A stretch of 64,000 bases of DNA, taken from Coffea arabica. Lineage: Eukaryota; Streptophyta; Magnoliopsida; Gentianales; Rubiaceae. Shown here in pieces: positions 5,400 to 62,950 of this stretch (positions are counted from its first letter, which is position 1; each line of letters opens with the position of its first letter). The position numbers were made by a program, and so were the translations under genes. The DNA lies in NCBI RefSeq assembly GCF_036785885.1, contig NC_092312.1, positions 10,930,001 through 10,994,000 of the forward strand, written 5' to 3'. Below the pieces are notes generated by a model. The model saw only the letters and a list, made by a program, of their open reading frames with translations. It did no database searches and had not been told where the DNA came from.

Positions 5400-6130
5400 T
5401 TATTGGCCCCAGATAGAATGCCAGCTGTTCTTTTTCTCTTTTGTGTACGAGTCTATGTAAAATTTGCAAGCTTGACTGTTTTTAGACGAAGAAGAAACAA
5501 GTTGTTGGACATCCATCCTTGAGACGTCCGTCCAGAATCTCTCCCAATCGATGTCCACAGATTTAACAGCTTCAGAGGATAAAGCAAGAAACCTTCTTGA
5601 GAAATATGATTGATTATGAAGTGCTCCATTCACCATCAAATGCTGAAGAGAGAAGAAATACAACGGATCTGAAGGAAGTGCAAGAATTCGTGGACCACAA
5701 ACATTTCGCAAGCTAATCCTCTATAGGGAGTTAAAAAGAAAGTTCATAAAACTGCCCAATAATTAAAATGATTAGGCTGGTTGAGTTTATAATCAAACTT
5801 TCAAGCTCAATTTGTGTTAGCATGAGCCATCTCCAGGGATTCCAACGCGGCACAAGTAGATAATATCTTCTCAATCGAACCCCCCCCCCCCTGCAGCCGT
5901 ACATGTTTTACTGATAATCTCCTGAGAGATTTCCATTTGATCATGCTAGAAGCAGATGGTATTTCCCACCTTTTCAATCTCAACGATTTCGAACTTGAAG
6001 CAAGGAATAGATGGCTTGGCAACACATAATCATCAGCCCCGTATGCATGGCTGCTGTTTAAATTTAAAGAAAAGTTCTCAACGTTGTTTTCGGAAACAAA
6101 TTCAACACAGCGATCAACACATTTTTCCAA
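5400..6130 (-). pseudogene. F-box/LRR (FBD-type) protein relic
   Basis: Two open segments look like consecutive pieces of a plant F-box/leucine-rich-repeat protein. The first (6130 down to 5807) has the pattern of this family: a DRCVEF segment, NVENFSLNLN, a YVLPSHLF segment, SKSLRLKRW, then WKSLRRLSVKHV and ALESLEMAHA. The second (5711 down to 5400) continues with LRNVCGPRILAL and further LRR-like text. About 100 bases with stops and no obvious splice sites separate them. The reading frame of the first piece is preceded by a stop and has no ATG; the F-box itself (about 130 residues) is absent. A run of C (5881-5892) lies inside the coding part and adds glycines. I read this as a truncated, frameshifted relic. 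Confidence 0.6.
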
Positions 6131-6363
6131 AAGTTACTTTCCTGGCTTGTCTCCTTTGAACTTCTCGCTTCTTTTGCAGCCGTAGCACTCCCACCGCCGG
6201 CCGGCCAGGGTGTCTCTCTGGTTTTTCATTAGAGTTCCGAGTTGTATTTAGGCTATGCCTTGGGAACTACGGTTGTTTGCCCTTTGGCCATTTACTTTGG
6301 AGAGTCCAAAACATAAGTCACACAAATTTGTGAGTGTTAAATTTTCAACTCTTAACAAGATGG

Positions 6364-6435
6364 GTCGTTGTAGTATAGTGGTGAGTATTCCCGCCTGTCA
6401 CGCGGGTGACCCGGGTTCGATCCCCGGCAACGGCG
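6364..6435 (+). tRNA. tRNA-Asp (anticodon GUC), copy 1
   Basis: A 72-base cloverleaf. The acceptor stem GTCGTTG pairs with CAACGGC, followed by discriminator G. The D-arm holds box A (TAGTATAGTGG), the anticodon arm is CCGCCTGTCACGCGG with anticodon GTC, and the T-arm holds box B (GGTTCGATCC). No intron. A short T-run (6442-6445) follows and could end RNA polymerase III transcription. All stems are complete, so this copy looks functional. Confidence 0.97.
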
Positions 6436-6445
6436 ATTTACTTTT

Positions 6446-6589
6446 ACATCCATCATACATTTTTCTTTTGTAGGAATTGAGAGTGTGTTTGATAAAATTG
6501 AAATTTAAAATTTAAAGACATCCATCATACATTTTTCTTTTGTAGGAATTGAGAGTGTGTTTGATAAAATTGAAATTTAAAATTTAAAG
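6446..6589 (+). repeat. Perfect 72-bp tandem duplication
   Basis: Bases 6446-6517 are repeated exactly at 6518-6589. The unit starts ACATCCATCATACATTTTTC and includes the left end of the adjacent MITE (GTGTTTGATAAAATTG). With no mismatch between the copies, the event is recent. Confidence 0.95.
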
Positions 6590-7084: not shown

Positions 7085-7156
7085 ATCGTTGTAGTATAGT
7101 GGTGAGTATTCCCGCCTGTCACGCGGGTGACCCGGGTTCGATCCCCGGCAACGGCG
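7085..7156 (+). tRNA. tRNA-Asp (anticodon GUC), copy 2, mismatch at 1:72
   Basis: It is identical to copy 1 through the D, anticodon and T arms, with anticodon GTC and intact boxes A and B. The first base is A instead of G, so position 1 cannot pair with C72 and the acceptor stem opens with an A-C mismatch. A T-run follows at 7162-7165. It may still be transcribed, because the internal promoters are intact, but RNase P trimming and charging could be impaired. It is a possible early pseudogene. Confidence 0.9.
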
Positions 7157-7256
7157 ATTTGCTTTTGCACCCTTGGGTGAAAGAGATTGTTACACATGTA
7201 GTGGTTTTTCCTTGTCAGTCACAGGATTTTTTTGCTGATACATTGATCTGGAACTG

Positions 7257-8006
7257 AGTAGATAACAGCATAAACTAATGTAACATCAGATCAAGTGAAT
7301 AATCTCATCTAGGCTATCCTGATCTTATTCCAAAAAAATCTAGTTTATGAGACATAAATCTGGGAACATGGCTTGCAGACATAAGACACTCCACTGCATA
7401 TCCCATTGAAATTAAAGCTGGAGACGACAATGGCCCTTTATTGTGTGAAGGTCTTTTAACACCAAGCATAAGCCAGAAACATTTTTTTATCATGAGGATT
7501 TATTCTTAAGGTTTGCTGAAAGGGAAGAGAAATTACGCACCAATATAAGTTCCTATTTTTCTTCTTCGTCCAGGGTTTGTTTTATTTCAGTTTTGCTTTT
7601 TTGATGTGTGCTCCAATTTGTCAGAAAAAAATTGGAAAATCTCCTTATCGATATCATTCTCACCTAGTCAATAGCAAAGAATATTGACACGGAAATCTGA
7701 AAGTAAGCAGCTGCACTAGCACATATAACAGGTCGAGTATGCGTTAGTTAAGTTCCAGAGAAATACTATGCTCTGAGAGAGGATCTTTTAATGTAAATGT
7801 AAGGACACTAGAAGAATATGTTGACATGGAAATCTACAATTAAGCAAGAGAACTGCCGGAATGAATGATCTCAATGGTTGCTCTTGGAAGGATATAGGGC
7901 TAAGTAGATAAAGATCAAGTAATAAAATCCTGATCTTTTTCCAACAGAATCTTTTATATTTTTTTCAATAAAAGCATGCAGACGCCACTCCATTGTCCCC
8001 CTTTGT
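7257..8006. other. 3' flank of the motor-less myosin gene; nothing else seen
   Basis: AT-rich non-coding sequence between the second tRNA and the stop codon of the minus-strand gene. It probably contains that gene's 3' untranslated region. No other gene is supported. Confidence 0.5.
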
Positions 8007-8908
8007 TTATCTTCCCCACCATTTCTTATGACTATTTTTCCCTGTTTCAGAGTTGCCAAGCTTCTTGATTGTGGTTTTTGCTACCATCAACTTATTCTTG
8101 AAGTCTTTCTTCCAAGTTTTAAACTTGAACTTCAGTCTCTCGAGCTCCTCTTCTGGATTGGTGCTAGAAGCCATCCTTCCAGGTTCAATGTGAATAAAGA
8201 TTCCAGTATCTTCATCCAAAATCCCTTTCTCATGATCAATGAGCTGATCAGAATTTGATCTGCCATTTAATTGAAACCTAGATGTAGGTGATGGATCAGG
8301 TGCATCTTCGTCCTGAATTTCAGGTAAAGCCAAAAGTAGGCCGAGTTTGCCCACAGCATGTTTAGAAGAGCTCTTTTTAGTTGCTAGATTCATCTGCAAT
8401 AATATACAAACCAAGATGCTTGTCATCAGAAACATTTGCCTACTTTCCCTCAGTTTCTTGATGCATAAAATTTTCATAGGGCATCATTTTCTCAGAAGGC
8501 AGCCTAAGGGAGGGAGTTGTCTAAGTGCAGTACAAGTTTATTGCGTATTCCAGTTCCTTACTTAGCTACTCTTGAAATAAATAAAATACCAACCTGTACA
8601 TATTGAAGTCATCCAAGTCAGATATCATATGACATTCTGATGACAAAATCAGAATCAGATACTAATTTAGCAAGCTAATAGGTTTTATTGGGATTAGGAG
8701 AATGATTTACTCAGAAGAGAAAAGAAGATTCCAAAGGTCTCTTGCATATTTGTATTTTCTGCCAAGTGATACGACACTCAGGTCATCCATAGTGAACTTT
8801 GTATTGCCTAAATCGCTATGAGATGCTAATGTTATAAGGCATCAGGTTCTATTTGTCACGGGCAACCATATGTAATTTGAAAAGGGTGATTCCCACACAC
8901 GCACTCAG

Positions 8909-8961
<53 letters not shown>

Positions 8962-11168
8962 CTGAAACTCACTTGCATAGATGTTAACTGATCTTGCCAT
9001 GTCTTCTCCATCAATTTCATTTTTGTCTCATATTGCTGCCTTTTTCTCTCGTGTTGCTTTATTTGTAGCTTTAAGGTGGCATTTTCCTCTTTCTTCTTGT
9101 CTAATAAGGCCTCTGTTTTCAGAACTCGTCTTTGTAGATCAACTAAAACCGAGTATGGAACCATAATTTGATCCTGACAACAAAAAGACCGAATGCGTCT
9201 ATCACGCTTCCCATGGAAATCACAATCTACCATTGAACTAGTAATATGAAATGGCAGGATAGCTTTATTAGATAACATTTTGGATTATGAGATACGCTAT
9301 ATCAAAATGCAGATCACCAAAACAGGATTGAGGACAGTGGCTATGATAGTAAGAACAAAAATACCTTATTTTCTAGGTTTTTCACATTCCTTGCTTCCTC
9401 ATTGAACTGTCTCTCTCTTTTGTCTGTGGAATTGTAGTGCCTCCATGCCAACCAACCACGGATGCCTGAAATGCAAATTAGCCATCAAGGCATATTGCCT
9501 AACAACACAAATGAATTCTCATCCAAAATTCACATTTTCTTACTTGCTTGCAAGAATATTGCTGCCTGATCCTTTTCGTCTAACATGGTACTTCTGAGCT
9601 GACTTTTTACACATTTCTGTATGGCTCGAATGGCTTTCATTTTTTTCATGAAACATATTCTTGCATTTTCACCACGAACAACTGCAATGCAACACAAAAT
9701 TGAGTTAGGGATCCCAAAGTGATGTTTTCTTGACTTCAAAAGTTCTCAGCATCGGCATTTTTGCACGTAATATGAAATTCCTGAGTTTTTCCACAATAGC
9801 TCTAAAGGACGTTCGGGACTAGCATCTTAGAAGAGATAAACATGAAAAAACTATTCTGAAGAAAAACATTCAGGCATTCTGAGTAGAAGAAAAGATGACA
9901 ACACTTGCATGATTGCAGTGTAATTACTCCTATTTTAAGCTCATCATACTGGCAGCAGGTTTGACGACCATGCAGGCGTTTCCCCAGCATCCACTGCAGT
10001 GCTATTTCCTTTGCCTCGTCAAAGTTACCAACCTAAAAGTTACTTATTTTGTATCAGAAAACAGAAAATGTTTGTAGAAGTAACTGATTCATAGAAAGTA
10101 CAAAAACATAAACGCTAAAACAAGTCATGCATCAGACTTTTGTTTCTCGCGACAAAATCTCAAGAAAAATATTAGGATTGGAAAAGATGATTTCCATGTT
10201 CTTAGTCACGTTTGCAGTTCTTTGCCCAGCAGCAGAGACAGTTTAGTGTTTGTAAATATCTCATGTTGTTAAAGTTTGCAGTAAATGATGGATGAGAACA
10301 AAAGGTGATCTTTTGATGATTAAATTGAACAGCTAGAACGAGAAACAAGTTAAATCCATGTAACATAAAGATAATTCAACAAGTTATAAGACATGAATTT
10401 ACCGAAGTATAAGTTAGATCCGATAAGGATCCTTTAAATACATAGATAAACATACTTCTTGTGGGATTGCCTTGTCCGTCCCAGCAACAACAATAACTTA
10501 GAATCACAGTCACTATGCCGTTTTTACTTGGATAATCTGTCTGACGACCAACGCTAAGGGCATCAGGCATGAAGATCACAATTTTAAAATTCCTGCTACT
10601 GTCGATAGTAATTAGGAATGAACGCATGCTCTTTTATCATAGCCTAAACAAGTAATCGAGAAAGAAATATAGTCTAATCGTTCACATTAAACAATATACA
10701 CACCAAAAGAAAACTCAGACGGCCAACTTAAAAAATTAAACTGATGTATGCAGAAAGCAAGCTAATTGGAACGTAAGCAGCCAAAATTATCAGTGTATTA
10801 GCGCACTATACCTTATCTGCATTACCATTTTCTTGGTTTCCGTGGCCACATCCCGCAAGCGAGCCATTCGCAGACTCAACTACAAATGCTGGTGCTCCCA
10901 CATCAGGCCTTTCTGCAGACTCAAAAGAATCACCGCTCATTGCTCTTCTTCTCCCAATCATCCTCTCTTCACAACTTAAAGTGATATCTAGATCACTTTT
11001 CTGGGAGCTAAGTGATAGTTGCCTTCTTGACCGAGGCAGCCGAGCCCTGATTACTGGACGAGTTGGTAAAGCAGGAGGCTCATCCGCTGGCTGATCCTCC
11101 ATTTGCTGGAGTTGTTTCAGCATAAGCTCGAGGGAGCTAGGAGTCACCATTGTGTTTGTTGCAGGCAT
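8007..11168 (-). CDS. Class VIII myosin-like protein lacking the motor domain
   Basis: Six exons (10812-11168, 9909-10032, 9544-9681, 9365-9465, 8973-9173, 8007-8393) join in one frame: 1308 nt, 435 residues. Residues 1-119 match the N-terminal extension of plant class VIII myosins (SSLELMLKQL, PPALPTRP, RARLPRSRRQL). Residues 120-240 hold degenerate IQ motifs (ITLQSFVRGENARICF, AIQKCVKSQLRS, FLQASIRGWLAWRHY). Residues 250-306 form the coiled coil typical of the family (SVLVDLQRRVLKTEA, WQDQLTSMQ). Residues 308-435 are the basic tail. The motor of about 700 residues is missing: exon 1 splices in phase 0 to the IQ exon across a 779-base intron with no P-loop or other motor motif. Intron 2 uses a GC donor (GCAAGT). 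If expressed, it could bind calmodulin-like light chains and dimerise or bind cargo without moving on actin. Alternatively it is a decaying gene that happens to keep its frame. Confidence 0.72.
8911..8960. repeat. Compound microsatellite (TA)n-(GA)n
   Basis: About 24 bases of TA followed by about 26 bases of GA, lying in intron 5 of the motor-less myosin gene a dozen bases past the splice donor at 8972. Confidence 0.95.
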
Positions 11169-13085
11169 AGTTGATTACGAGTGGTTCATAAAAATTTCAG
11201 ACCTTGGCCATCACAAGTGTATATTTCCAGACAAAGTAACCAAATTCTTACACATGAAGACAAGGTTTGCTGACATATTCTTGGCTTTACTTGTAGATAC
11301 AGAAAGCTAGCACAGTCATTTAACTACTTTTATTGGTGGAATAACAGTACAAGACTCAGAGTACTCCTGCATCTGTCACCTGCAAGAAATCTTGCTTTGT
11401 TCTGCTTTTGCTTTATCTGAATCTCAAATTTAAGGTGGGGCCCTGGTCCTGCAGCTTTGTTGATGCAAGAATAGTTGAAGTTCTGCTGGGTTAGGACCAT
11501 AAACCCTATGCTAAATCAAATGAAAATGATGATGAACAGTTTTCCGAATTAGCTAATGTAAATCAGTATATATAAAGCTTCTTGGAGCACGAGTGTTTAA
11601 CAAGTAGGAGTGATTAAATGATTAGTAAGATAGCAAAACCTAATTATCTAATCCCACCTTTTTATTTTGATCAAAAAGAGGGAACTTAAATTATGAACGA
11701 TCAAATTGTTTGATCATTTTGATCATTGATGAGCCCAATTAATTATATCTACATGTAGATCATGTTCATCCTATCAGAACAGTTGCACTAAACTCTTAGA
11801 TTTGAGCATGTTAAAGAGATATAGGGATTTGGGGGAGGTCTTTGGGGGGGTTTTTGCGATCATCAATCACAATTGCATGGTAACATAATAACCGTAAACA
11901 TAAATATAATAATATATAAACGAGTTAATCTTGTATATATTAATACTGTATATATTATGATGATTGAATACATAATATGTATATATAAATTTTAAATTTA
12001 AATCATATATCATACATTTAACGGTAACTTCACAATACACAGCATGATTGTAGAAGCGGCTCGTAGCCTTAGGCCATATAATCTATATCCTAGAAGAAGG
12101 TGGGGATAATGATGAAGAGGACCAAGAGGATTGCTTTGCATGACCGCATTATCATGGTTATTCGCTTTGGAAGCACCACTATTGTCAAAAAACAAACAGT
12201 TTAACTCATTATTGTCATTCAGTTTTCCATTCTTCATAATAAATTATCTCCATCTTGACCACTGAACTTCCTCAGATGGAGTGGGGATTGGAAAACTCCT
12301 GTGTGCTTTGTCTTCATTGAAGGGTAAAATAATGAGAAAATAAGTGTCCGAGCATTTCATATGAAAAGCTGCCTCCTGTGGTGGCTGGCTCCATAACTGC
12401 AGAAGGAATGATGTCTTGTGAAAAGGATGCCTCCATCAAAAGACTTGTCACATGGGGCAAATATTATTGATTTTCTATACCGAATGATGCTTTATCAACC
12501 CATCTCTACCAGAACCACAAATTTAATTCCATAACCAATAAGTAGTGATCATATTAGCCTTCGGAGCACATTCTCGAGTCGGATATGCAGCAAGCATGCA
12601 GTACGAGACACCATCCAAAACAATAGAAATAAAGCAAAGCTGATAGTGGCAGCCAGTCAAAGGTGGGGCTGATATCTGGTCTCCAAATAGGGGAATTAGG
12701 AGTCTCAAAATCTGAAAAAAGAAAAAGATACTACAATTCTGTCCCACTAATTGCTTCTCGGCCATTTCAACTACAGGGCAAAAATAGAATAGTAGTACTA
12801 TTTATTAACAGTTAATTAGTCCAAGACTTCAAACCACCAACATTCTTTTGTGTTTTTTTCTTTTTCCTTTTTTTTCCCCAAAAACAGCAGTATATTTTGC
12901 AACATACCCTAACACGCGTCTAATGGTTGCGGATTAAGGGGGACGGTAAACACAAGTATCTAATTGCAGAATCAATCACCTTATTAGAAAACTTTTGGGC
13001 TTTTCTTCCCCTTATTTGTCTGTGAAGAACGGTTAATTAATAAAAAAAGGGTTTCACGATATTAAGATTTAAAAGGCAGATGCAG

Positions 13086-13089
<4 letters not shown>
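11169..13089. other. Intergenic upstream of the motor-less myosin gene
   Basis: This should hold the promoter of the minus-strand gene. No clear TATA box was fixed. Short open frames near 12010-12237 and 12523-12765 (minus) resemble no family I recognise and lack splice or codon support. The rest is AT-rich with homopolymer runs. Confidence 0.4.

Positions 13090-13119
<30 letters not shown>
13090..13119. repeat. (CT)n microsatellite
   Basis: About 15 uninterrupted CT units. Confidence 0.95.
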
Positions 13120-13121
<2 letters not shown>

Positions 13122-13674
13122 ATAGTTTATAGGCGGTAGAATCTGAACTCATGTAGTTCAGAAAACATTTTCTTTTAATGTAAATCAATGTAAGAGGTGG
13201 ATGGAGTGGCAGGTTTTTTTTTATAGATAAGTGCGATGTTTTAAATCAGAATTATATATTTATAATTTTTCTCACTTTATCATTCAATTCAATTATTACA
13301 ATCCCTCTTTTTTTATCGTTCAATTCAATTCAATCCTTTTTTCTAGAGCCAATTTTTTTGTCTTTATACATTTGAAAATTTGAAAATAGTGTGTTTTTAA
13401 CTTTTATGCCGGTCAATGGTCCTGATGGAAGCAAATAATGACCACATACCAGTAATCAAGGTTTGACTTTGCACTTTAGTACACTGGTCTTGCCCAAAAC
13501 CCTAAACACTAAAACAGGCTTTTGCGTTGAATTTTAAACAAAAGAGAATTATTTTGAACCACTGGGCTTTTGGCAGTGGCCACCACCTACTTGGTGGTGG
13601 GTTGGGAGGCAAGGGTATCAAAAATATCATATTTTTATGATTTATCTCCAAAAGAATTCAGATGAATGTGCTGT

Positions 13675-17862: not shown

Positions 17863-18559
17863 GCTCGAATTGCTCCTGGTTCTTGCACAATTCCAAAGAA
17901 TCTAAAGAATTCTCAACGATGGGCACTGAGCACTACTAATTTGTATTAAACAATAAACTAAATTGCACTAAACATTCGAATTAAAGTACATTAATATCAA
18001 TTGAACAAGATTAATTGCAATGCAAAGAAATCAAACTTAGAAGCCATAAAGTCCTGGAGCCAGAAAGTCTTGCAGACTTGCACTAAACATAAGGTCAGAT
18101 GCAATCTTGCACTGCACAGCAACATGAACGACAAGGGAGAGTGGAAACAAAGAACTTCATTGCTCTACGCCTCTACATCCACAAAAGCTAAAATTTACAC
18201 CACAACTCGGTGGCATATATGTATATATATTACACCACAAAAGCTACTGATAGAACTCAATATGAGCAAGTTTTAAATTTCTCCTTGAAGAAGTAAACCA
18301 AAAAGTCAATCCAACCCATTTGGAATTCCATGCAGCAACATTTTGCATAAATGAACACAAACAAAAATTCACCTCTCTGTTTTATGAAGCAAGTTTTCCT
18401 ATCATGGTTGGTATACAAACCATTGATTGTAAGATATTAGGCACCAAAAAATAAAAGGGAATAAAAAACCCAGCAAACGTCTTCACTAACTCAAAATCAG
18501 CAAATAGGAATTTCCACTTGCAAATCATCACAAAGCCCAGATTGAAAAGCAACACATGC

Positions 18560-18968
18560 TTCTTACCCATCCAAATAATTGTTCTTTGGACATTCTTAAC
18601 ATACAAGTCCTTTTTCTCTACCGGAACATAGTTAGGACCCATGATTCTAATCTTCATGCCAGTAGCAGTTTTTTCAGAAAACACACGGCCAAAAGCAAAG
18701 AATCTACCTTTGTCAGATGCTGGAATCATCTTGGATACATAGAGCATAACCTGTTCCTTGGGACACACCTGTCCATCTTGTTCACAGGTTAAGACAGGCC
18801 GAATCCTTTCTCCCAGAGCCTGTCCAATGACAGTTTCTGTTTAGACACACACACACCCTCAATACAATCAACCACCACAAATGCACCATCAGTAATACAA
18901 AGGGCAGCAGCAGCAGTCACCTCAGATGAGAAATCAACATGCCCAGGGGAATCAATAAGATTAATAAG
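18560..18968 (-). pseudogene. Captured, internally deleted elongation factor 2 fragment
   Basis: On the minus strand the GTP-binding part of eEF2 is readable from 18968: [20 protein letters not shown] (the DxPGH G3 motif), then [17 protein letters not shown], after a frameshift [17 protein letters not shown], then NKMDRC (the NKxD G4 motif) in a third frame. It jumps directly to a later part of EF2: [48 protein letters not shown]. More than 300 residues of the normal protein are missing between the two parts, with the join near a cysteine codon common to both. After WMGKK similarity is lost, perhaps at an exon border. The fragment lies inside the hAT element, between the transposase gene and the left end, so it moved with the element. 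It cannot make a working EF2. Confidence 0.85.
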
Positions 18969-19607: not shown

Positions 19608-22281
19608 TTACAATAACAAATTTATATAGATATAACTTACTTTCAATTTCTTTTTGAGCCCGTGTAAATTTCTACACCAATCGCCTGCACACATTAACGT
19701 CTGAACTGTCTCCGGAGCAAGTGAAGCACGGTATGAATCAATCACCCTAGTTCCAGCACTAAAGGTGGACTCAGATACGACGGTAGTGATAGGAATGGCC
19801 AATACATCAGCTGCTAGTTGAGAGAGTACCGGGTATGCTGATCGGTTAATTTTTCACCAATCAAGACATTTGAAATCCTTTGAATTTTGCCCAATAGGTT
19901 GGCGAGGCTTGTCTAGGTAATCCACCAACTCGCTCTTATGGGGTTCATCAGATTCGAGTTCACCACAATACTCATCCAAATCATCCCAATAGTCAGCACT
20001 TGCTCGAGGTGGACACACTATTTCAGATGCAAGATTTAATGAACAACCTTCCCCTGCATTTCCACTTGTACCCATAGCAACGTACTCCTCATAAAGCTCA
20101 AAGATGGCTTTTCGAACATATGTGATATTCTCTTGAGTTTCATATGTGGAATACATCTTAGGGAAGACAAACTCTATTGCTCGCATTTTCTGTCTGGGAT
20201 CCAAGATAGCTGCAATGGACATCAATAAATTGCACTCTTTCCAGTATTTGTCAAACTTGAGCTTCATTCTTGTAATCATATCCCGGACAAAATCATCTTC
20301 ATCATCTACTCGTGCATCCAAGAGTTTCTTCACCTTTAGAATCTCAGGGAGGAATAGATTGTTAGTTGGATACTCACTCCCCGAAATTATGTGCGTGGCT
20401 GTGTAGAACTTCTCTAAAATGGTGCAAACTTTCTCAACTTTCTCCCAATCCTCTGAAGATGGACAAGACAATTAAAGGGGCTCTCGAACTTGAAAACGAG
20501 GAAAAACCTCTTTATATTTTATAGCACAATTCAACATTTCATATGTTGAATTCCATCTCGTCCTACAATCATGGAGCAATTTTTTTTTCCCTCAATTCCC
20601 CATTCCTTTGCACACTTAAAAACTGCATCCGAAATCTCAACTCTTCGACGTGGTGGTCGAATATGAACAAAATTTAACACCCTTTTCTGAAGCTTCCAAT
20701 TTCCATCAATCCAATGTCCGGTCACCACCATTTTCTGATTCTTTGATTTTCACATATCAGTGGCCAAGCTCACTTTCTGTACTTGCCTCAGCAAGTTCTT
20801 CAACTTTTTTTCTCTATCTCGTACACCTGTGTACAATCCTTTTTTGTTGTCATACGTGAGATCTTCTGCCACTCCGGCCAGCCGCGTTTCATCATTAGGT
20901 TGAAACCCTCTTCCTCCAAAATTGTGAAAGGATGCTCGTGCATCAAGATCCAATGTGCAGCAGCCTCTCTCATTGCTTCCATATCAAATTTGCCCGTGTG
21001 CAATGGTGGTACAGTTGAAAAACGCTCATCCGCCGGCTGAAAGTTAATCTTTGTTTGCTGCTCAGCCATCCTAAGCTTGGCTTTTCTAACGGAACAGTTT
21101 TCTCGATGCCTCCACATGCTGCTGGTTTGTTTAGTTTTTCCCCGATTTAGTTTCTTGCTACAATGTTTACAAATGGCATAATATATGCCATTTTCTTCCA
21201 AATCGTCGAAATCTTCCCATGCCTCTGATGTTTTATTCCTTTTAGGTATTCGGAATTTACCATCATCTTCAGCCGCGTCTCCTTGGTGCCTATTGGTGTT
21301 TTCGGTTCCCCCTTCTTGTGTTTCACCACCCTCCTGTGTGGGATCGCAGCCATCACGGCTTACAAATATTGGGCTATCAATCATGACTGGTGTGGATGAA
21401 TCAGCCCCAGACACACGTGGTATTGAAGTAACCTCGGGTGGACTAATAGACATGCCTTTAATAGAAAAACAAACATTTGCATTGAAATGAGTTCCAGTAC
21501 AAACATTTGTAGCATGATACAGAGCTTAAAATAGGCCAATCATACTAAAGATTGCTCATATTTCTGCTGCACAGATAATTTTCAGCAACTGGAAGAATAA
21601 CAGTCATGTGATTTAAGTTGATAGGCATCAAAACATATTTGCATTGAACTCTTAGTGTTTCTTATTCCTATCATAAGCACAAGGGTTAGATCTTATGAGC
21701 ACTTACCAACCAAAAAAAAAATTCAAACACGGTCACCATCACCAAACAATATATTCCAAGCACAATTTCTCAGATTGAACTCCAACCATCAGGATATTTC
21801 AGATTAAAAGTTGCAGAAGAATTAAGAAATCAAACCATAACAAGCAACAAAATTAATCAAGCAATTGCAAGCCAACTCCTGCAAGAGTACACACACTAAA
21901 ATGGCAAAGAACCATCTAAACAGCATGAACTACTAGCTGCCAGGTTAAGAGAACTACCAAAAAGGAACTACCAACAGTAATGAAGATTGTCTTTAATTTT
22001 TCTAATTCCTGGAATAATTTGTTACGTTAAATAAAACTGCATAGGATAGCATCAAAATTATTCTCTAAATGACCAACTTAAGAACATAACTGAATATTCT
22101 CATTAATCTTATTAATATACTAGCTAGGTAACACTTAATAATCCAACTGAAATCAGTGCATTTTCACATCAAAGAAAAACCCACAAACATGTTTAGAGCC
22201 AATGTCAAGAAACTTACCAATTCTTGGAGCTGTAGCGCCAACTGCCGAATCACTTGTTGAAGGAATCGAGCTGCCCTCCAT
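19608..22281 (-). pseudogene. hAT transposase (BED zinc finger type), broken
   Basis: Exon 1 (22218-22281, MEGSSIPSTS...) splices in phase to exon 2 at 21455. The BED zinc finger region (WEDFDDLEENG, AICKHCSKKLNRG, TSSMWRHRENC) is intact, followed by the hAT core (AAAHWILMHEHPFTILEEEG, KKDCTQVYEIEKK). An A-run frameshift follows near 20807, then a TGA replacing the expected Trp after SLATDM. After KCAKEWGIEGKK there is another A-run frameshift and a loss of roughly 100 residues of the catalytic core, resuming at LLHDCRTRWNSTYEML. A TAA interrupts REPL/LSCPS near 20472, and a TGA replaces Trp in LDWWKINRS near 19855. The C-terminal dimerisation region is recognisable ([43 protein letters not shown]). 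With these lesions it cannot give a full transposase, though the N-terminal DNA-binding part (about 230 residues) could be made. Confidence 0.9.
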
Positions 22282-23932: not shown

Positions 23933-26900
23933 ATGGATTGGGGTAATGTTCTGTCTTCTTCTTTCCTCTTTAGAATCATGCTAGTCCTTGAACTAATTGC
24001 CATTTGGTACTCTTTGGGATTCTGTTGAGTGTTCATGTCTTTGCTTTAATAAATATCGTGTTCATCCTGCATTTCAGCTTTGATTTGCTCAATATTGATT
24101 CGCTGTAAATTTTCAATTCAGTTTGACGAGTGGCTATTTTTTAGGTCTCTGCGTCGTAGATTGGAGTCAGCATGAGTATGGTTGACTGAAGTGTTATTTT
24201 TTGCTTAATGGTTGTGATATACCTTTTTTCGAGGGGGTTATAAGATGTAGTTTTGCTTCATCTTTATATGTTAATTCCTGAAGTGACCATCTATTCCTTT
24301 AGACCAACTTATGGTATTTTCTTCATATTCATGTGATGTCATGTACTTGTTTGTGTTGTTGCCAAATGGTCATTTCATCTTGCTGACTTTGGAATTTGGT
24401 TAGAGTTGCAACTTATATTTATCTAGGATTGGCTGTAAAATGTTCATTGTCCATTACCCTTTTTTTAGCATTTTGTTGTTAAATTGCACTCAGAAAATTC
24501 ATGTCATTTTTAATATACTTTGTGACCACCAATATCTGCTCTTTCTTTATTAAGCTGTTGGTCATATGTTGTGTTTCAGAGGATGAACCTATTCCAGATA
24601 TTTTGAAAAAGGAACAACCTAAGACTAAAAGTTTGTGGGATGATGAAGACGTAGATGACAATGATGTGAAAGAGTCTTGGGAAGATGAAGATGAGCCTGC
24701 TGCGGTATTTTCGTTTTCTTTCTCTGTTCTGTTCAATCAATGTAAGATATATTCAGGTGTTGAATTAGAATGAGGGAATGCCACCTTAGCTAAACCATAT
24801 GCACAAAATTCCAGATAATTGTTTGTTCCGTTACTTAGCATGAGTGATAACTACATTCTTGATTTTTCTTAGTTATGTACTTTTGTCTTCTATTATTGAA
24901 GATTCTTCTAACCTTCTTCCATGGGGATCTGTATTAAGTTGCTTGAGTTATGATACTATCTTTTGGGTTTATTGATATGTTTTCCAGTTGAGTGCTTAGT
25001 TATCTTTAAAACTTGTGACACCGATTTCGTTCACCCTTGTGCTGCAAAATGCAATTTATTGTTTTTTATGTCCAAGCTAATCACTGATTGAGCTTTATTG
25101 GATTTACATACGTTTTGAACAAAATTGGATCTTTGAAGAAAGATGCAAACTTCATGCCAGAATAAGAACCGTGCAGCTTTGGTTTAGATTCGTCTGATTT
25201 ATGTATTTGCCTCTGTACTTCTGTCTTATACCCATCCTCAGGGAGTGGTCTCTGCTTTATGCATTAACCTTTTCTCCCAACTAGAAGAGTAAAACTTTTG
25301 GTGCTATTGTAGTACTTTTACCAGTAGATATCGATGGAAACATATTGTAGGATCTTCTGCTTTTGTTACCCTCTTCCATCAGCAAGTTTCTTGATGTCAT
25401 AGGAATAGATGACATGCGGCCATGTAGGTCCAAATGTTGCATGATGAGTAGAGATCACCTTTTCATATCCAACTTGAGTAACTAATTGATTGTTGATTAG
25501 AATGAATAGATGATGGTTGTTGCTTAGAAAGTCATAGCATGAGTTGCACCAAAAGCAGTTATAGGCGCCCACTTAGGTACAAATGCTGCCTGATGGCTAC
25601 AGATCGCCTTCCAATTTTTTCATTCATTTGGCTTGCCAAACTAACTGATTGTCGCTAATAAGAAGTAGATGACATTTTGTTACTTGGAAAGTTGAAGCAT
25701 GAGTTACACCAAAAGCAGCTATAGGTGTATGTAAAACTAATAAATTGTCCTGAAAATGGCTTAAGATAGGATATCTTAGATTGGAATGGTTGTGTGCATC
25801 AAGAATTCAGAATTTTGACTGTAAATGGAGTTAAAACTTTCCAGTACATCAATCCTAGGGCTTAAGTTAAACAATGTGTGGACTAGTCTATACGCGTGTT
25901 TGTACCGCATGTGGTTTAGGATGTTATGTCACTTGGGATGCATGATGTTTACAATAGTTGCTTTCGAATTGTTTATGTGCTTTATCTTGATGTATCAGGC
26001 ACCCATAGTAGAACCACCTGCTGCAAAGGTCCCAAAGAAGCCAACAGCAAAATCAGGTGAGCAGAAAGAAAAGAAAGGGAAAGCTACTGAAGTTGCAAAG
26101 GAGGAGCCACTAGATCCTGTAGAAGAAAAACTTCGCCAGCAAAGGTAATGCTTCTAAAATCTTACTTTTATTGTTTTCATAATTTCATAAATAAAGAGTG
26201 AGATGTATTTCAAGAATAAGCTTTTAAGGAAATAGAAAATGGGGCTTCAGAGATACAGAATTAGTTGGGTTGACAATGGTCTCCATTGTTGAAGGAGTAA
26301 ACATGATGAAGTGTATTTTTTGGGCGAGTTCAATCATACTTGATCCTATTTTAGCTCTAGTGGAGTGGTAATGGAAGTGCAGGTTTGACTGCCACATGGA
26401 GTCTTTAAGTGGAAAATTTTGCTTTTTATGTTTAAATGGATCTTTTGTCTGAATCATACAGCAGGAGGTATTTAGTCTGGCTGTGGTCAGTCAACTGGAG
26501 TCTTACTGTCTGCTTGATTGCTTCTAATTTCTTACTAAATGCACAGTAAATTTAGTGATACATGTACTTCAATCTGAAAAATATATTATATCGTTGCAAT
26601 GGGAGATAGTTTTTATTTATTTTCTTGAGACCATTGAAAAACAAATTTGGCTCGAGCTTATAAGCTAATTATGTTTTGTCATTTCTAAGGTCTTGTATGC
26701 CGAATTGTTTTTTTTTTTTTAAATTCACAGTTTTGTGCGTCCTCTCTTATTAGTTATTCTACTGTCTTGAAATTCACTGGTTGGTTTCTCTTTTTCTCCT
26801 CCATGTGATGATTGATCAAAATGAAATTAATAGTAAAAACATTGGACATCAGGTCAAGGAATTTGAAATTTTCTTAATCTATTGACTCATTTAAATTTTT

Positions 26901-30008: not shown

Positions 30009-33000
30009 ATGGAAACAGATGAAGCTCAGGGAATTGCAGTACCCTTCCAGCTACAATTCGACAAACCCATTGCTTCTCAGGTCCACTTTTTTTTTTTTCA
30101 CTACACTTCACTATAAACCCACGGACACTTGCAAGTTTATTCCATTTTTTCCCCTGCTTATTGTTCTGACAAAAGATTGTATTTTTATCGAGCTTTTGTA
30201 TAGATTAAAATTGCTGAATGGAACCCAGAAAAAGATTTGCTGGCCATGGTCACAGAGGACTCAAAACTCCTCCTTCATCGTTTTAACTGGCAGAGACTTT
30301 GGACCATTTCCCCCGGTATACATTGCAATCCCCACTTTTTATCTATTGATTTATTTATATCTTTTGCTTTTAGCATTTTCATCTGTCCACTTCCACTCTC
30401 CTTTTATGTACTAAGTTGTGGTCTCAGATTATGCGCGAATAAATTTCGCCGAAGTTGTTGTTGGAATTTCCCAGTTATGGATTTTTTAAATGCATTATTA
30501 GTTCAAATTATAAACTTCAAATTAAGCGAGTTACCGTCAGTTTAAATTTTTGAACTTTAGGCTTTTCAAGGTGGATCAGTTAACTAATTGTATGACGAAC
30601 TACATTACTTTGGGCCGTTAGATTGATTTAATGTTCATTTCTTGGAAATGAATGATAAGTGTTCGATAGAATGTCTGGTAGTAGCCTGCTTTTACTTGTC
30701 CCTTTTTGCTTGAGATGTTCAAGAAATTATAATAGTGTAGTTGTTAGGTATAATGTGGTAAGGAATCTAACATTTTTCTTTCTGAAGCTTATATGAAAAG
30801 AAGCTGTTTTTGTTTTTGAGGAACCCCAACATTAGATGGGACAAATAATTTGGAATTTTGAATTAAATATACTGATCATTATTTCAAAACTTGTAGTGGA
30901 ATAAGAACTTTCTTCATCTTATGTAGAGAGGTGCATCACATCCTTGTGTTGGCGTCCCGATGGTAAAGCAGTTGCAATTGGCTTTGAAGACGGAACAGTG
31001 TCATTGCATGATGTGGAGGTGAGTTAGTTTGAATTTTGACATTTTTTTTGGGAAAGATCATCCAGTTGAAGATATCAATTTTGATTAGATTGCTTCCCGA
31101 TGTAAAACTGTATCTACTAGGTTTTATACCTACTTGACTGAACTTCATATAGTTTTGAAATCCTGGATCAGACGAGATATTAGTTTTCTATGGTTTAATT
31201 TGTCCCAAAACTATGAAACAAGCAGGACTTGGTTTGATTGAGGTAGAATCCCCTTCTTCAGATAACTATGTCTATCAACTATCATGAATAGAAGGCTGGT
31301 AAACATCATTCTTTTACTGTGGATTCAGAAATTACCCTGAGGCTAAAAGTGAAGGTTCCATAATAGACCACAAATTTATTGCATCAATAAGTTGTTTGTA
31401 ATTTTACCTGGTTATGAAAACACAGTCATCTTCTACACTGGAAACTTTGTGGGTACATATTTTTGTATATATAAGTCAAGCATTTTAAAATATATCAGAC
31501 CTGGGATGAACCAAATTTGTGGCTTTCCAAAAAGGGGTTATTAGGTTTTTTAACATCTCTTTAAGAAGCATCGCAAGAATTTACTTTTGGGGAGTTATGG
31601 ATGTTTCAATTAGTTTAGTATAGTACTCTAAGCTACAATTAGCAGATAATCTCTCTTCTGTGTTAGAGGTAAGAGAAGGAATTCGGGCTCTTGCGACCGG
31701 AAGTGACAGACCTTAATTCTTGTTAGGGTTCATGAGATTAGACCATATTGGATTACAAATCCAGTTACTCGATATTTGCTTTGTTCTTGAACATGGAACC
31801 AATAATTATACTCAAAGATTTTGTTCCCTGTTACAGGGATAAAATAATGCCATGCCTGAGCATTATCTGTCCTAAGATAGCTAGTGAGTTGGTAGATTTT
31901 GACATTGACTTATTTGTTCCAAAATGGGACATATATTTCTCTATTTAAATTTATTCTAAAACAACCCTGAAATATGCACAACCTTCATTTCTAGGAAATA
32001 TGGTCAATTAGGTAATGCATATTCAATATTAAATACCTATTTGCAAATGAATAGGAATTTCAGATGTGTAGTTGCATGATTTCAAATGCCAGGATAATCA
32101 AGTTCACCTAATCTTATTCATGAATAGAATTATATGTAGATTTTTTAGAATAAAGTGGATGCCTTCTTACAGATAGTTCATCCCACTGGTTACACCCTAT
32201 ACATGGCTCTAGCGTAAGTTAGGACCATTTTATGTTATGTGTTGTTTACTTTCTGAAAGACAATTCAGTTTTTTCTTTTTTTGTCCCCTCTCAAGTTTGA
32301 GGAATTGTTAACACCATTTCATCTTGAAAAGAAAAAGCACGGAGTTGTTGAAACATTATGGTTGTGTTTGAATATGGAGAAAATGGGTCCTGGCAAAAGC
32401 CTATGGAAGCGAAATTTGATTATAGTGTAAATGGTCTGGAATCATCAGACCATAGCTGTCAAAGGCTTAGTTTATCGAATAATTATCCTTGTGATGAAAA
32501 TTTATTGCCTTTACTGCTCTCTCTGACATTTTAGCATGCACATACGCTTTGCAAGCCTAATGTAATCTGTTGTAACTATCTTTCTCATGGACATCTCTTG
32601 CTTCTTGCTTGCTGTGTAAAGCATATCTTCTTCTTTTCTTTTGGATATCATGTACTTAAGTTATCCATTTTGTATTTCTACACTAATACTGAATTGAATT
32701 TGATATTTTGGTGATTTATGGTACACATGAGCCTTCTTCATATACATCTGTCCTATAATGATACAGCAGTTAGTTATCAGATTATGTTAACACTATTACC
32801 TTGTTTCACTCAATTGATTTCTTATTTGGAATAGGGTCGAATCTAGTCATCTCTACCCTGTTCTACATATCATGGTGTATGCTCTATCTTTAACTTTATC
32901 ATGTTCTGATCTTTATGCATGTCATTTTGCTTGGGATGCATGTTACTGGAACCAGAATGGAAAGTTGTTGCGGAGCATAAAACCACATACAGTTGCTGTC

Positions 33001-47508: not shown

Positions 47509-50500
47509 CTATGACTCTTCCAATTCAACAATTTGTGCTCTTCTCTCAGCAGCTTTCTTCCTGATGAAGATGCCCCATCTCAGGGCTGCTTTGAGTTTTA
47601 GCCATCCAACAACAGCTTTACCTGATGGACGTGTTCGATCCTCATCAAAAGCATAGCCTGAAGATGTACCAGCCATGTATCCCAGTGGGTATTGGTAGTT
47701 ATTTTCTGTCCCATTTACAGGAGTGTGACCATAACCTCCCATGTTGAAGATGCGAAGTAGATTCTGCATGTCTTCATTTTCAAGCATCTCATGACTCCTT
47801 AAGCGGATGTCTTCCTCACTGAAAACATCATCAAATCCCCTGTAATTGGAAAGATTGGATGGGCCAGGTGCATGGAAGCTTGACATGGAAGACTGTAGTG
47901 GTCCAAGGGCCAGCAAATTTGTATTTGTTGGAGAGTGAACTTGTGATGATGTAGTAATCATCTGGTTATGCAGAGGTAATGAAGAGCCATGGATATGAAT
48001 AGTTGGATTGAGGTTCATGCTCTGAGATTGCATTTGAAATCTACTGCCGCCATTCTCATCGTACCCTAATGAAAGAGTCAGCAATCAAGCATCAGTGACA
48101 GGTAAATTAAAGCAACACAATTTAAAATGGTTCCAATGAAACTAAACATATCCAAAAGGAGGGTGAACAATACATCACAGTAACTGATCTAACAAGCACA
48201 AATAAAATAAAGGAGTTTGATACATCACATTTCTAGATACCTGATTCTTAGTGGCTTGCCTTTTGTGTTAGTAATTTAATTGCCCATCTCATTTTGTGCT
48301 TGTTAGCATGCCATGTTCAAAATGAACTTATCCTCTATTGAAATGTCCACTCTTTACCCAATTTTATGTATGTTTGAAAATTTAAACACATTTATTTTGT
48401 GATCCACAAACAGAAACCAAAATCATAACAAGATAAAGAAAACAACATTATATACCACCTATGGTCTGTACTGGACTGATTGAAGGCTGCTCTGAAGGAA
48501 TCAAGGGTGGAAGACTTGGTAGATTGACTTGATAATCAAAAGAATTTGAATCGTTTTGTGATCCAGTAGCAATATCACTCTGAGGAGCACTTGAACTTTT
48601 ATTTTCAGCGAAGCTAAGGAGAGCTTTGCCATCATACTCAATAACATGCATCCAGTTTTCATACGCCTTCTTCACCAAGGTATCAACATAAAGCTGCAAA
48701 AATTGAAAAAATTGGGGTTCAAAATGGTCTGATTCTTCCAAAAAAGTTCTAACATCTATGTATATCAGCAGGAATTGAACAAGAAGAGGGTCAGCAGTGG
48801 CATGCAAGTGTGATGATGTTCAACCATTTACCAAGACTGGTCGCCTACAAGATTTATTAGCGAGACACAGATACATGTCCAGACCAATAATGTTGCATGT
48901 AACGCCATTAGCATTAAACAACACATCTGACCTTGACGACAGGTAATGAACAGTGAGAATACCAGAATATGCATGGTACAGAATCTTGCTAGGCAAAAGG
49001 ACTGCAAAAACACAAACCTTCTGACTGTCAGAGAGAGTGTCAGCTGGATGGTATTGGTCACCAGCAATCAAACCAGTCAATTCATAGATATTGTTAAACA
49101 CCACTCCAACATGTCTGAGATCATCTGGATAGTAAATATAGTGATTCCCACTCAGAACACAAGTCTTCGCATGCTCCACCAGAACGTCCCACATTTTATT
49201 TGACATTCCACTTCCCAGTATCTGAGACAATCAAAGTGAATGCTATGTAAGTATACCACTTCAAGTAGAGAAAAAGAACCCAAAAAAAAAAACAGTTTTC
49301 TGTGATTCTTACATTTCGAAGCTTCTGCGAATCTCTTACTACAAGTCGTAGGAAGTCTTCTACAGTGTATAGTCCAGCTTTATTTAGCCTCTTGTGGAAT
49401 GATCCATCTTTTCCAATCTTCTCTAATCTCCAAACTTCATCGTGCAATGCTGGTGGATAATGTTTCTTGTACACTGCAAACCAAAGTGGTCACATATTTA
49501 ATACAAATACCAATACAAAACAGCAGCTTACAGAAACACATGCTGAAAATATTTTACTTCTATATTTTTATCTTGTACACATGCTGACAGTCATAAACAA
49601 AGTAGCAGCACGAAAGCTTGAAATGATGTAAACTTACATTCTCCTCTATGATCCTTGACGGTGAATGCATCTGTTTTGGCTTCACGGATACGAATGGCCT
49701 CACAGCAACCCAAAGCAACCTTCAAACCTAATCTAAATTTTCTGCTCCTAATCCAGCTAGAGTTGTCTGTGAATGTCAAGTCCCCTAGTGTCCCTACACC
49801 ATCCTTCAAAGTTACTTGCAAGTCCCCAGTTAGAAGTGGCCTCTTTCCTTCACGCTCTTTCACTACGTGGGAATCAAATTCTTCTTGAGTCCATCCATCA
49901 TCATCTTCATTGTTGAAATCACCTTCAAGAACAACAATGTCCAATTTTGCTGAGGACTCTGGACCAGAAGTTACAACATGGCCACTAACAGCATCAACCA
50001 ATACTATGTGAATTGCAGCACCTTGCTCCCCTTCTACTTTCCCTCCTGTAAATAGAGGTAGGGACAACTTTGTTCTGAACTGCAGCTGTAGGTTTCTTCC
50101 GTCAGGCCCTTCTATTCTTTTTGGAGATGTCCTGAAAATTTATGAAAGTTTAATGCCACAGAGGATATAATATGACCAGGGTTGCACTCCCCTTCAAGCA
50201 GCACAAACTCAAGTATAAATGATCATCCAGCAACATGATACTAGGAAGTTACAGAACAAAATTCTTGAGTGAGGCTTCTAAATTGAACACAACGAACATA
50301 ACAAGAAAGTGATGTTCATTTCAATTAGCATGCATTTGATTTGATTAAATAAAAAAAAATTTCTTTTTAAAGAGATAAATAAATAAAAATAAACCAAAGA
50401 CAAAATTCAGTATAAGGGAACAAACATAAAATCTATCCAAGAGGTATTCAAGCCCTGTACATTTCAGAAGTAACTTTGCTCTCTTTAAAGAAGTCTGCAG

Positions 50501-59534: not shown

Positions 59535-60925
59535 ATAGATTCAAAAACATTTTGAATTCCTTGTTTTTGCCTCTGTTTTTGAAAAACTGTTTTTCACATT
59601 CCAAATACTACAGTAAATGTGTATTTCCAAAACAACTCAAAAAATACCATATCCAAACATTATATCAAAAACAACTCCATATGTATATTTCAATTTGTAT
59701 ATTTCAATTATGTATATTATATATATTATATTAATATAAATTAAAATATACAAATTGAAAATAATATATTTATATATTTATATATTATATAAATATTTAT
59801 ATACATTAATATTATACATAATATAATATAATTTACATAATGTGTAATATTGTATACATAAATGTATAAATATTTATACATAATATATTATGTACATTAT
59901 ATTATAATATATACATTATTAATGTATAATATTATTATGTACATTATTGTGTATAATAATGTTATGTATAATATATAATATACATAATATGTAATAATGT
60001 AATAATGTATATTATGTATAATATATTATGTTATGTATATTATATTATATATATACAATATTATGTATATTATACAAATTGAAAATTATATATTATATAT
60101 TTATAAATTATATAAATATTTATATAATGAAATATACAGTAAATATTACAAATTGAAATATTATATAAACACCATATTTATAATATTATAATATTTATAA
60201 TTAATATTAATGTATATTATATATACTAAATATTTATATATTTATTTATACATATTATAAATATTTTATTTTATTTAAAAAATATTTTTATATATTTATA
60301 ATATATTTATATAAATATTATATATTATATATAATATAATACATAATATAATACATAATATATATTATATATATTATACATTTATAATTATACATTTATA
60401 AATATATTTATATTATGTATTATATATAATATAATACATTTATAATGCATTTATATATTTTTATATAAATATATTTATTTATAAATGTTTATAAATGTAT
60501 TATAAATGTATAAATTTATATTTATATAAAAATTATAATTTATAATTTATACATTTATACATTTATATAATATTCATTTAAAGTTTATACATTTATAATA
60601 ATATACATTTATAAATATATTTATGTTATGTATTATATATAATATAATACATTTATATATTTTTATATAAATATTTATAAATGTATTGTAAATGCATAAA
60701 TGTATATAAATATAAAAATTATAAATTATAAAAATACTCAAAAATATGTTTTAAAAATGCCTCTAGAAATAATCCAAAAAACATCTACAGTAAAAGTTTT
60801 TCATATAGTTTTTTAAAATAACCCCAAAAACAACTAATCCAAATGGACTTGTATTTCAAAAACGAAATGCTATAGCACTGTTTTTGAAAAACAACCCCAA
60901 AAATAACTAATCCAAACGGAGCAAT
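59535..60925. mobile_element. MITE-like ends enclosing a hyper-AT tract
   Basis: The left piece (59535-59660: TTTTTGAAAAACTG, ACTACAGTAAATGTG, ATATCCAAACA) and right piece (60735-60925: ATCTACAGTAAAAGTTTTTC, CTAATCCAAATGG, GTTTTTGAAAAAC, CTAATCCAAACGG) look like parts of one MITE type. Between them lies about 1.1 kb of nearly pure A/T. The right piece contains two similar halves, so the structure may be composite. Confidence 0.5.
59640..60735. repeat. Hyper-AT low-complexity tract, about 1.1 kb
   Basis: Almost only A and T, with recurring words such as ATATTATGTATAATATA, ACATTTATAAATATAT and TTATATAAATATTTATA. Several longer blocks repeat with changes: compare 60365-60440 with 60600-60665, both ACATTTATAAATATATTTAT followed by the same TATGTATTATATATAATATA. 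It grew at least partly by local duplication. Confidence 0.9.
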
Positions 60926-62734: not shown

Positions 62735-62842
62735 ATGCGTCTATTCAATATTCATTATTATATCTGTAATGTATTTCTGTGACCTCCAATGCGTCTATTC
62801 AATATTCATTATTATATCTGTAATGTATTTCTGTGACCTCCA
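62735..62842 (+). repeat. Perfect 54-bp tandem duplication
   Basis: The unit starting ATGCGTCTATTCAATATTC occurs at 62735-62788 and again without change at 62789-62842. It follows a (TA)n run at 62709-62727. Confidence 0.93.
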
Positions 62843-62950
62843 ATGTCTAGTTTGCGTCCTGCAGAGAATAGCAACGGCCATGCTACGTTAATTGAGACTT
62901 GACTTCTCTCTCTTTAATGTTGCAGAACAAAACCATGTCAAAGGAACTTG

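What the first reader, a model, noticed from the sequence alone, without database searches (positions are those of the whole stretch)
8007..11168. A class VIII myosin gene without a motor that still reads as one protein
Seen: six exons on the minus strand join in phase into 435 codons with no stop. The N-terminal class VIII extension (119 aa) runs straight into IQ motifs, coiled coil and tail. The 779-base intron where the motor exons should be contains no P-loop, switch or actin-binding text. Known: class VIII myosins normally have an N-extension, a motor of about 700 residues, IQ motifs, coiled coil and a tail. Inference: loss of the whole motor at phase-0 borders left a possible headless protein. 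It could compete with full-length myosin VIII for light chains, dimerisation or plasmodesmal cargo. It could also be a decaying duplicate.
Basis: partly seen in the sequence, partly recalled or inferred. Interest (0 to 1): 0.8.

Follow-up and report, generated by a model that had tools for sequence, protein, structure and literature searches.

The report
Motorless class VIII myosin gene
This plant appears to carry, on both copies of a chromosome, a myosin gene that has lost the whole engine part yet still reads as one intact protein, a natural version of the truncated tails that biologists build to block such motors; whether the plant makes and uses the protein is not yet known.

Summary
Six minus-strand exons (11168-8007) join in phase into 435 codons; the 779-base first intron holds no detectable motor. 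Tools added four things. (1) The window lies in what looks like a phased diploid plant assembly. Contig C4 carries the same motorless gene, intact, so a local misassembly is unlikely. (2) The genome has at least two class VIII genes with motors, A type (C9/C10) and B type (C21/C22). Against A, the gene keeps exons 1 and 20-24 and lacks exons 2-19 (18 exons, 2145 nt, 715 residues), at phase-0 borders. (3) It is very diverged (36% identical to A over neck and tail), but patchily. IQ2-IQ4, the coiled-coil exon and the WW terminus keep 50 of 65 sites invariant in four motor-bearing sequences (two typed from recall); the motor-proximal IQ1 and the middle tail keep 6 of 32. Long selection on the retained modules is the best reading. 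(4) Against that, amino-acid differences between the two alleles are about as dense as silent and intron differences, and one intron needs a GC donor. It is either a motor-free class VIII protein under weak constraint or one recently released. The headless plant myosins I found in print are class XI.

The parts
8007..11168 (-). Headless class VIII myosin gene, ATG 11168 to stop ending 8007, 435 codons in six exons
   Evidence: allele on C4:10775420-10778677
10812..11168 (-). Exon 1, 119 codons (149 in the A gene): MyTH8-type N-terminal extension. Residues 1-52 keep 23 of 37 sites shared by the A gene and recalled ATM2 (SSLE.ML, PPALP.RP, RARLP); residues 53-119 keep 6 of 28, and the stretch that leads into the motor in motor-bearing genes is mostly lost
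   Evidence: definition of MyTH8 from PMC3850447
10033..10811 (-). Intron 1, 779 bases, phase 0, in place of motor exons 2-19 of the A gene; the genome search matched only this locus and its allele; the C4 copy carries an 85-bp tandem duplication
9909..10032 (-). Exon 2, 124 nt (homologue of the 130-nt exon that follows the motor in the A and B genes): degenerate IQ1, 2 codons shorter in the IQ1 core
9682..9908 (-). Intron 2 with a GC donor (CAT|GCAAGT), same on both haplotypes; the A and B genes have GT there
9544..9681 (-). Exon 3, 138 nt: most of IQ2 (canonical) and a B-like IQ3 stretch that the A gene lacks
9365..9465 (-). Exon 4, 101 nt: IQ4 (IRGWLAW) and linker
8973..9173 (-). Exon 5, 201 nt: coiled-coil exon; keeps 21 of 28 sites invariant in four motor-bearing class VIII sequences
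8007..8393 (-). Exon 6, 387 nt with stop: tail; middle part eroded (4 of 21 invariant sites kept), C-terminal WW region kept (16 of 22). The intron before it marks subtype A
   Evidence: for the intron rule

Best explanation
A class VIII myosin gene, probably of subtype A, lost all its motor exons (2-19 in the numbering of the A gene) by a DNA-level loss between intron 1 and intron 19 [the absence is shown by comparison with the genome's own A gene; the event is inferred]. The remaining exons still join in phase on paper into N-extension + IQ2-4 + coiled coil + WW tail [shown as open frames on both haplotypes; splicing itself inferred]. The protein was kept for a long time without a motor: the lever-arm IQ1 and the lead into the motor eroded, while the light-chain, dimerisation and C-terminal modules stayed [erosion shown; its order after the motor loss inferred]. 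It most likely works as a motor-free class VIII tail: it binds calmodulin-like light chains, dimerises with itself or with the motor-bearing proteins, and sits at class VIII membrane sites (plasma membrane, plasmodesmata, endosomes) as a passive anchor or competitor [inferred]. Present constraint is weak.
For: Intact on both haplotypes: 17 codon differences, 0 exon indels, against 6 gaps in 1854 aligned intron bases. Exon order and phases match exons 1 and 20-24 of the A gene; lengths without stop are 357/124/138/101/201/384 against 447/130/114/104/204/402 (numbering). Branch of 1.11 substitutions/site over 272 sites, about 300 replacements, with no stop: chance under neutrality 6.6e-9 from nonsense alone. 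Codon model on 277 codons: omega of the headless branch 0.24, and omega = 1 costs 2dlnL 6.39. Retention of sites invariant in A, B and recalled ATM1 and ATM2: IQ1 2/11, IQ2-4 13/15, coiled coil 21/28, middle tail 4/21, WW 16/22; permutations as uneven 0 of 20000. Own-genome sequences only (A=B sites): 5/20, 17/28, 25/36, 7/32, 19/28, chi-square p 4e-5. Control: A against the other three keeps 11/13, 15/16, 28/39, 21/26, 22/25. Published ATM1 IQ-tail fusions without a head go to plasmodesmata and plasma-membrane spots and stop associated ARA6 organelles (PMC2275265, abstract and one section); class VIII tails act as dominant negatives (PMC4199776, passages).
Against: Between alleles 11 replacement and 6 silent differences: N/(S+intron) ratio 0.92 (0.40-1.84), against 0.26 (0.11-0.44) for the homologous parts of the A gene; allele omega 0.85, not distinguishable from 1. 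Intron 2 needs a GC donor with T at -1; none of the other in-frame donors listed looks good by eye. The constraint on the long branch includes the time before the motor was lost, and silent sites look saturated (branch lengths 5.3-10.6). Module borders were drawn after seeing the alignment; by whole exons, exon 2 against the rest is 5/14 against 51/83, Fisher p 0.086. Recalled ATM2, which has a motor, is itself less complete in IQ1 (11/18). No transcript evidence.
Confidence: 0.55

Rival explanations
1. Recently released relic: the gene was selected in the past (with a motor or headless) but is now unexpressed or unneeded and simply has not yet acquired a stop.
For: Allele differences accumulate in codons as fast as in introns and silent sites; allele omega 0.85; GC donor. 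From nonsense alone, about 5% neutral divergence is needed before a stop is expected at the 95% level, and the alleles differ at 17 of 1308 coding bases.
Against: Exon indels 0 against 6 gaps in introns, a small sample. By simple pN/pS the headless alleles (0.58) are not far from the homologous parts of the A alleles (0.42). IQ1 keeps only 2 of 11 invariant sites while IQ2-4 keep 13 of 15, too much patchy change for so short a neutral time if IQ1 decayed after the motor loss.
Confidence: 0.3
2. Two transcription units: exon 1 gives a short MyTH8-only protein (its frame runs one codon past the splice site into TAG) and exons 2-6, or part of them, belong to a separate tail transcript.
For: Unspliced exon 1 is an open frame that ends in DKV-stop; nothing here shows the exon 1-2 junction in RNA.
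Against: Exon 1 ends in a GT donor in the right phase for the exon 2 acceptor on both haplotypes, as in the A gene, where exon 1 also ends in phase 0.
Confidence: 0.1
3. Assembly artefact: the motor exons were dropped by the assembler.
For: No reads could be inspected.
Against: The same structure stands on two contigs, C3 and C4, which differ by single bases and an 85-bp duplication inside intron 1; no N in the window.
Confidence: 0.03

Closest known systems
Class VIII myosin of subtype A in the same genome (C9:52017291-52026620 and C10)
   Same: Exon 1 and exons 20-24 correspond in order and phase; PPALP.RP/RARLP extension; tail intron of subtype A; WW terminus
   Different: The A gene has motor exons 2-19 (715 residues), an intact-looking IQ1, no IQ3 stretch, a GT donor where the headless gene has GC; only 105/294 residues identical over neck and tail
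Headless class XI myosins: Arabidopsis 11E2 (HDK) and Poales 11E4
   Same: Natural plant myosin genes without a motor, from (potentially partial) duplication; 11E4 keeps 3 IQ motifs (PMC3850447 section 9)
   Different: Class XI with coiled coil and DIL tail and with new N-termini; here class VIII, with the class's own N-terminal extension kept and joined to the neck
Maize O1 short transcript
   Same: Predicted headless plant myosin (PMC3935558, passages)
   Different: A transcript from within a class XI locus that also makes the whole myosin, protein not detected; here a separate locus with its own N-extension
Artificial ATM1/ATM2 IQ-tail and class VIII tail constructs
   Same: IQ + tail without a head (PMC2275265, PMC4199776)
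   Different: Man-made truncations (IQ-tail by the abstract, so without the N-extension); here a natural gene with the extension and with IQ1 and middle tail eroded

Membership tests
Class VIII myosin | Motor domain | tested here: not met
   No motor match in intron 1 or the window; no Myosin_head match listed at the locus; Pfam on the protein finds IQ and nothing else above its cut-off
Class VIII myosin | MyTH8 N-terminal extension in a single exon | tested here: met
   Exon 1; residues 1-52 keep 23 of 37 sites shared by A and recalled ATM2; E 7e-9 to recalled ATM2
Class VIII myosin | Three to four IQ motifs | tested here: inconclusive
   IQ2 canonical, IQ4 found by Pfam, IQ3 B-like, IQ1 degenerate
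Class VIII myosin | Coiled coil after the IQ motifs | tested here: inconclusive
   Exon 5 conserved, 21 of 28 sites; simple heptad score reached by 36 of 500 shuffles, against 9, 13, 35 and 72 of 500 in four motor-bearing sequences
Class VIII myosin | C-terminal WW motif | tested here: met
   Ends KKWWGR; WW region keeps 16 of 22 sites
Class VIII subtype A | Conserved intron in the tail (absent from B) | tested here: met
   Intron between exons 5 and 6 as in the A gene; the B gene has one 651-nt tail exon
Class VIII subtype A | Groups with A in a tree; third IQ missing | tested here: inconclusive
   Third IQ stretch present; three placements not distinguished, AU 0.27/0.55/0.54
Plant headless myosin (HDK/11E4 kind) | Separate locus, motor exons lost, remaining introns in position and phase | tested here: met
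Plant headless myosin (HDK/11E4 kind) | Class XI origin with DIL tail | tested here: not met
   No DIL match in Pfam; class VIII tail
Plant headless myosin (HDK/11E4 kind) | Transcribed | not testable with these tools
   No RNA data

The most novel reading that the evidence does not exclude
An old, selected headless class VIII protein: after losing its motor it was remodelled, shedding the lever-arm IQ1 and the middle tail and keeping extension, light-chain sites, coiled coil and WW terminus, so that plants of this lineage carry a natural built-in regulator or passive anchor of class VIII myosin at plasmodesmata or plasma membrane.
Probability: 0.45. Interest if true: 0.68.

Novelty: new variant of a known kind. 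Interest (0 to 1): 0.52.

Why it matters
The headless plant myosins described in what I could search are class XI. A class VIII one that keeps its N-terminal extension would be a natural counterpart of the dominant-negative tails used to study plasmodesmata, and would let the poorly understood extension and tail be studied apart from the motor. It would also show which parts of a class VIII myosin matter when motility is gone.

Tried and rejected
Motor hidden elsewhere in the window: rejected. The sensitivity control limits this: of 16 motor exons of the C10 model (the 28-nt one left out), mutated at random to 0.1, 0.2, 0.3, 0.4 and 0.5 substitutions per site, 15, 9, 4, 0 and 0 were found at E 0.01, so far-decayed relics would be missed; but 2145 nt of motor exons cannot fit into 779 bases.

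Intron 1 as a mobile element or repeat: no support; the genome search matched only this locus and its allele, though that search skips very common words.

Dating by tree: left open; the three placements of the headless gene are not distinguished, and silent sites look saturated. Origin by whole-genome duplication: not settled. A CBP60-like neighbour has an 83% copy on C11/C12 without a headless copy found there; eIF3j- and APC4-like pieces match only C3 and C4. Nothing found links the locus with the A gene on C9.

In-frame retention of intron 2 on C4: looked at and rejected; both haplotypes meet the same stop.

First gene model of A: the model guided by recalled ATM2 missed a 14-nt motor exon and gave 17 motor exons on C10 and two odd exons on C9. 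The model guided by the genome's own B protein finds it on both, and I use 18 motor exons and 2145 nt (2148 less 3 nt at the first border, placed as). The motor query was the older 708-residue model.

Rows dropped before counts: A introns 7 and 8 and B intron 14 in the allele comparison; alignment columns with a gap in any of the compared rows (277 codons kept; 272 sites kept); B has no N-extension in my models, so it enters no MyTH8 count.

Structure prediction was not tried: the protein exists only after splicing, and the tool takes letter-for-letter translations.

Literature: no headless class VIII gene seen (search listings) nor in the passages read; one search gave no papers. Peremyslov 2011 is not held and is known to me only through citing papers. 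Most subscription journals are not searched.

Full report
What is there. Six minus-strand exons between 11168 and 8007 join into 435 codons and a stop, with introns GT-AG in 4 of 5 cases and GC-AG in one. The conceptual protein begins with the class VIII N-terminal extension (called MyTH8 in PMC3850447), passes straight into the neck, and ends with a coiled-coil exon and a tail finishing KKWWGR. Pfam finds IQ motifs and nothing else above its cut-off, and among solved structures the one match is a weak myosin Va neck match (E 0.023). No motor is detectable in the 779-base first intron. The genome's own A and B motors match nothing in the 64 kb better than E 0.57, and a genome search with the intron matched only this locus and its allele.

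The genome. The window is G000:C3:10930001-10994000 in a 1.198-Gb assembly of 131 contigs, whose myosin matches fall largely in pairs of contigs, as in a phased diploid; that reading is mine. A search with the 435-residue protein gave 18 matches. Twelve are the six exons at the window and on contig C4; six are tails of two other genes, each on two contigs. The C4 copy has all six exons, the same donors (the GC one included) and AG acceptors, no stop and no exon indel. It differs in 17 codons, 11 changing the residue, while the introns show 20 mismatches in 1854 aligned bases and 6 gaps. An 85-bp gap in intron 1 is a tandem duplication on C4. A misassembly would have had to happen twice.

The relatives with motors. 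Spliced alignment, guided by recalled Arabidopsis proteins, gave an A-type gene on C9 and C10 and a B-type gene on C21 and C22 whose N-extension was not recovered. A second pass guided by the genome's own B protein added a 14-nt motor exon to A on both contigs, so A has 24 exons in my model. Exon 1 of A ends in phase 0, and the 130-nt exon after the motor begins in phase 0 with IGALEDTR; the headless exon 2 begins VGNFDEAK at the same place. So exons 2-19 of A are missing: 18 exons, 2145 nt, 715 residues. The intron between headless exons 5 and 6 lies where A has one and B has none, the mark of subtype A in PMC3850447. Yet the headless exon 3 keeps a third-IQ stretch like B's, which A lacks. 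The tree does not place the gene (AU 0.27, 0.55, 0.54).

Selection, for. The headless branch is long, 1.11 substitutions per site over 272 sites against 0.41 for A. That is roughly 300 replacements without a stop, for which chance under neutrality is 6.6e-9 from nonsense alone. A codon model on 277 codons gives omega 0.24 for that branch and 0.09 for the others; fixing it at 1 costs 2dlnL 6.39, and making it equal to the others costs 3.10. The change is patchy. Of sites invariant in four motor-bearing sequences (two of them recalled) the C3 copy keeps 2/11 in IQ1, 13/15 in IQ2-4, 21/28 in the coiled-coil exon, 4/21 in the middle tail and 16/22 in the WW region (C4: 2, 13, 20, 5, 16); 0 of 20000 permutations are as uneven. 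With own-genome sequences only, the counts are 5/20, 17/28, 25/36, 7/32 and 19/28 (p 4e-5). Scored against the other three references, A keeps 11/13, 15/16, 28/39, 21/26 and 22/25, and the headless gene 3/13, 13/16, 27/39, 4/26 and 17/25. So IQ1 and the middle tail have largely gone, while the coiled-coil exon is about as well kept as in A. In exon 1 the distal motifs stay (23 of 37) and the stretch leading to the motor is mostly lost (6 of 28). Erosion on both sides of the missing motor is what a long headless life would leave; that the erosion followed the motor loss is inference. Limits: module borders were set after viewing the alignment; by whole exons the contrast of exon 2 with the rest is 5/14 against 51/83, p 0.086; and recalled ATM2, with a motor, keeps 11/18 in IQ1 and 15/22 in IQ2-4.

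Selection, against. Between the two haplotypes replacement differences (11 of 993 sites) are as frequent as silent plus intron differences (26 of 2166): ratio 0.92, interval 0.40-1.84. The homologous parts of A give 0.26, interval 0.11-0.44 (introns 7 and 8 left out), and in 0.8% of resamplings the headless ratio was no higher. Simple pN/pS is less clear: headless 0.58, homologous parts of A 0.42 (neck and tail alone 0.61 against 0.65), neck and tail of B 0.16. Allele omega is 0.85, not different from 1. Present constraint is therefore weak, absent or too small to see with two alleles. The long-branch figures include the time before the motor was lost, and their silent sites look saturated. 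The GC donor of intron 2 with T before it may splice poorly; if the intron is retained, the frame stops within it on both haplotypes.

How it would work. Published head-less ATM1 IQ-tail fusions go to plasmodesmata, ER and plasma-membrane spots and stop ARA6 organelles they sit on (PMC2275265, abstract and one section). Class VIII tails expressed in Nicotiana displace a viral movement protein from plasmodesmata (PMC4199776, passages). A natural protein with IQ2-4, coiled coil and WW tail would be expected to do likewise: bind calmodulin, pair through the coil and occupy class VIII sites. Whether it competes or anchors is unknown, and no step of this was tested here; a simple heptad score does not prove the coil (36 of 500 shuffles reach it).

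Known or new. PMC3850447 (section 9 read whole; other passages) reports two types of headless plant myosin in its survey, both class XI (11E2, 11E4), and PMC3935558 (passages) a class XI transcript. My searches listed no paper that I recognised as reporting a headless class VIII gene; I read only the papers named, and the library lacks most subscription papers. I file it as a new variant of a known kind: not a class VIII myosin by definition, since the motor test fails, but derived from one.

The motor-exon count went from 17 to 18; a statement that the protein search excluded an unplaced motor block was withdrawn, since that query has no motor; the pN/pS and whole-exon results were added. None of these moved the odds.

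Noticed in passing
6364-6435 and 7085-7156: Two tRNA-Asp (GTC) genes about 720 bases apart inside a local duplication; the C4 haplotype also matches both copies.
   Followed up: no
6446-6589 and 62735-62845: Head-to-tail duplications of 72 and 54 bases with 100% matches, suggesting recent events.
   Followed up: no
around 11700: Haplotype divergence rises from about 1% (7200-11700) to 2-9% further upstream (11700-13500).
   Followed up: partly
5810-6133, minus: Frame matching the LRR part of FBD-type F-box proteins by Pfam.
   Followed up: no
19611-21525, minus: hAT transposon remains: BED finger, RNase-H-like and dimerisation domains by Pfam.
   Followed up: partly
18385-18840, minus: Frame that resembles elongation factor 2 to my recollection; Pfam gave no match.
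   Followed up: no
24483-26145 plus, 30204-30542 plus, 49594-50139 minus: Neighbours: eIF3j-like (Pfam match below its cut-off), APC4 WD40, and a calmodulin-binding protein (CBP60 name recalled) with an 83% copy on C11/C12.
   Followed up: partly
59709-60799: AT-rich tandem array of about 1 kb with many overlapping periods.
   Followed up: no
B gene, C22 and C21: Intron 14 of my B model is 379 bases on C22 and 1079 on C21.
   Followed up: no
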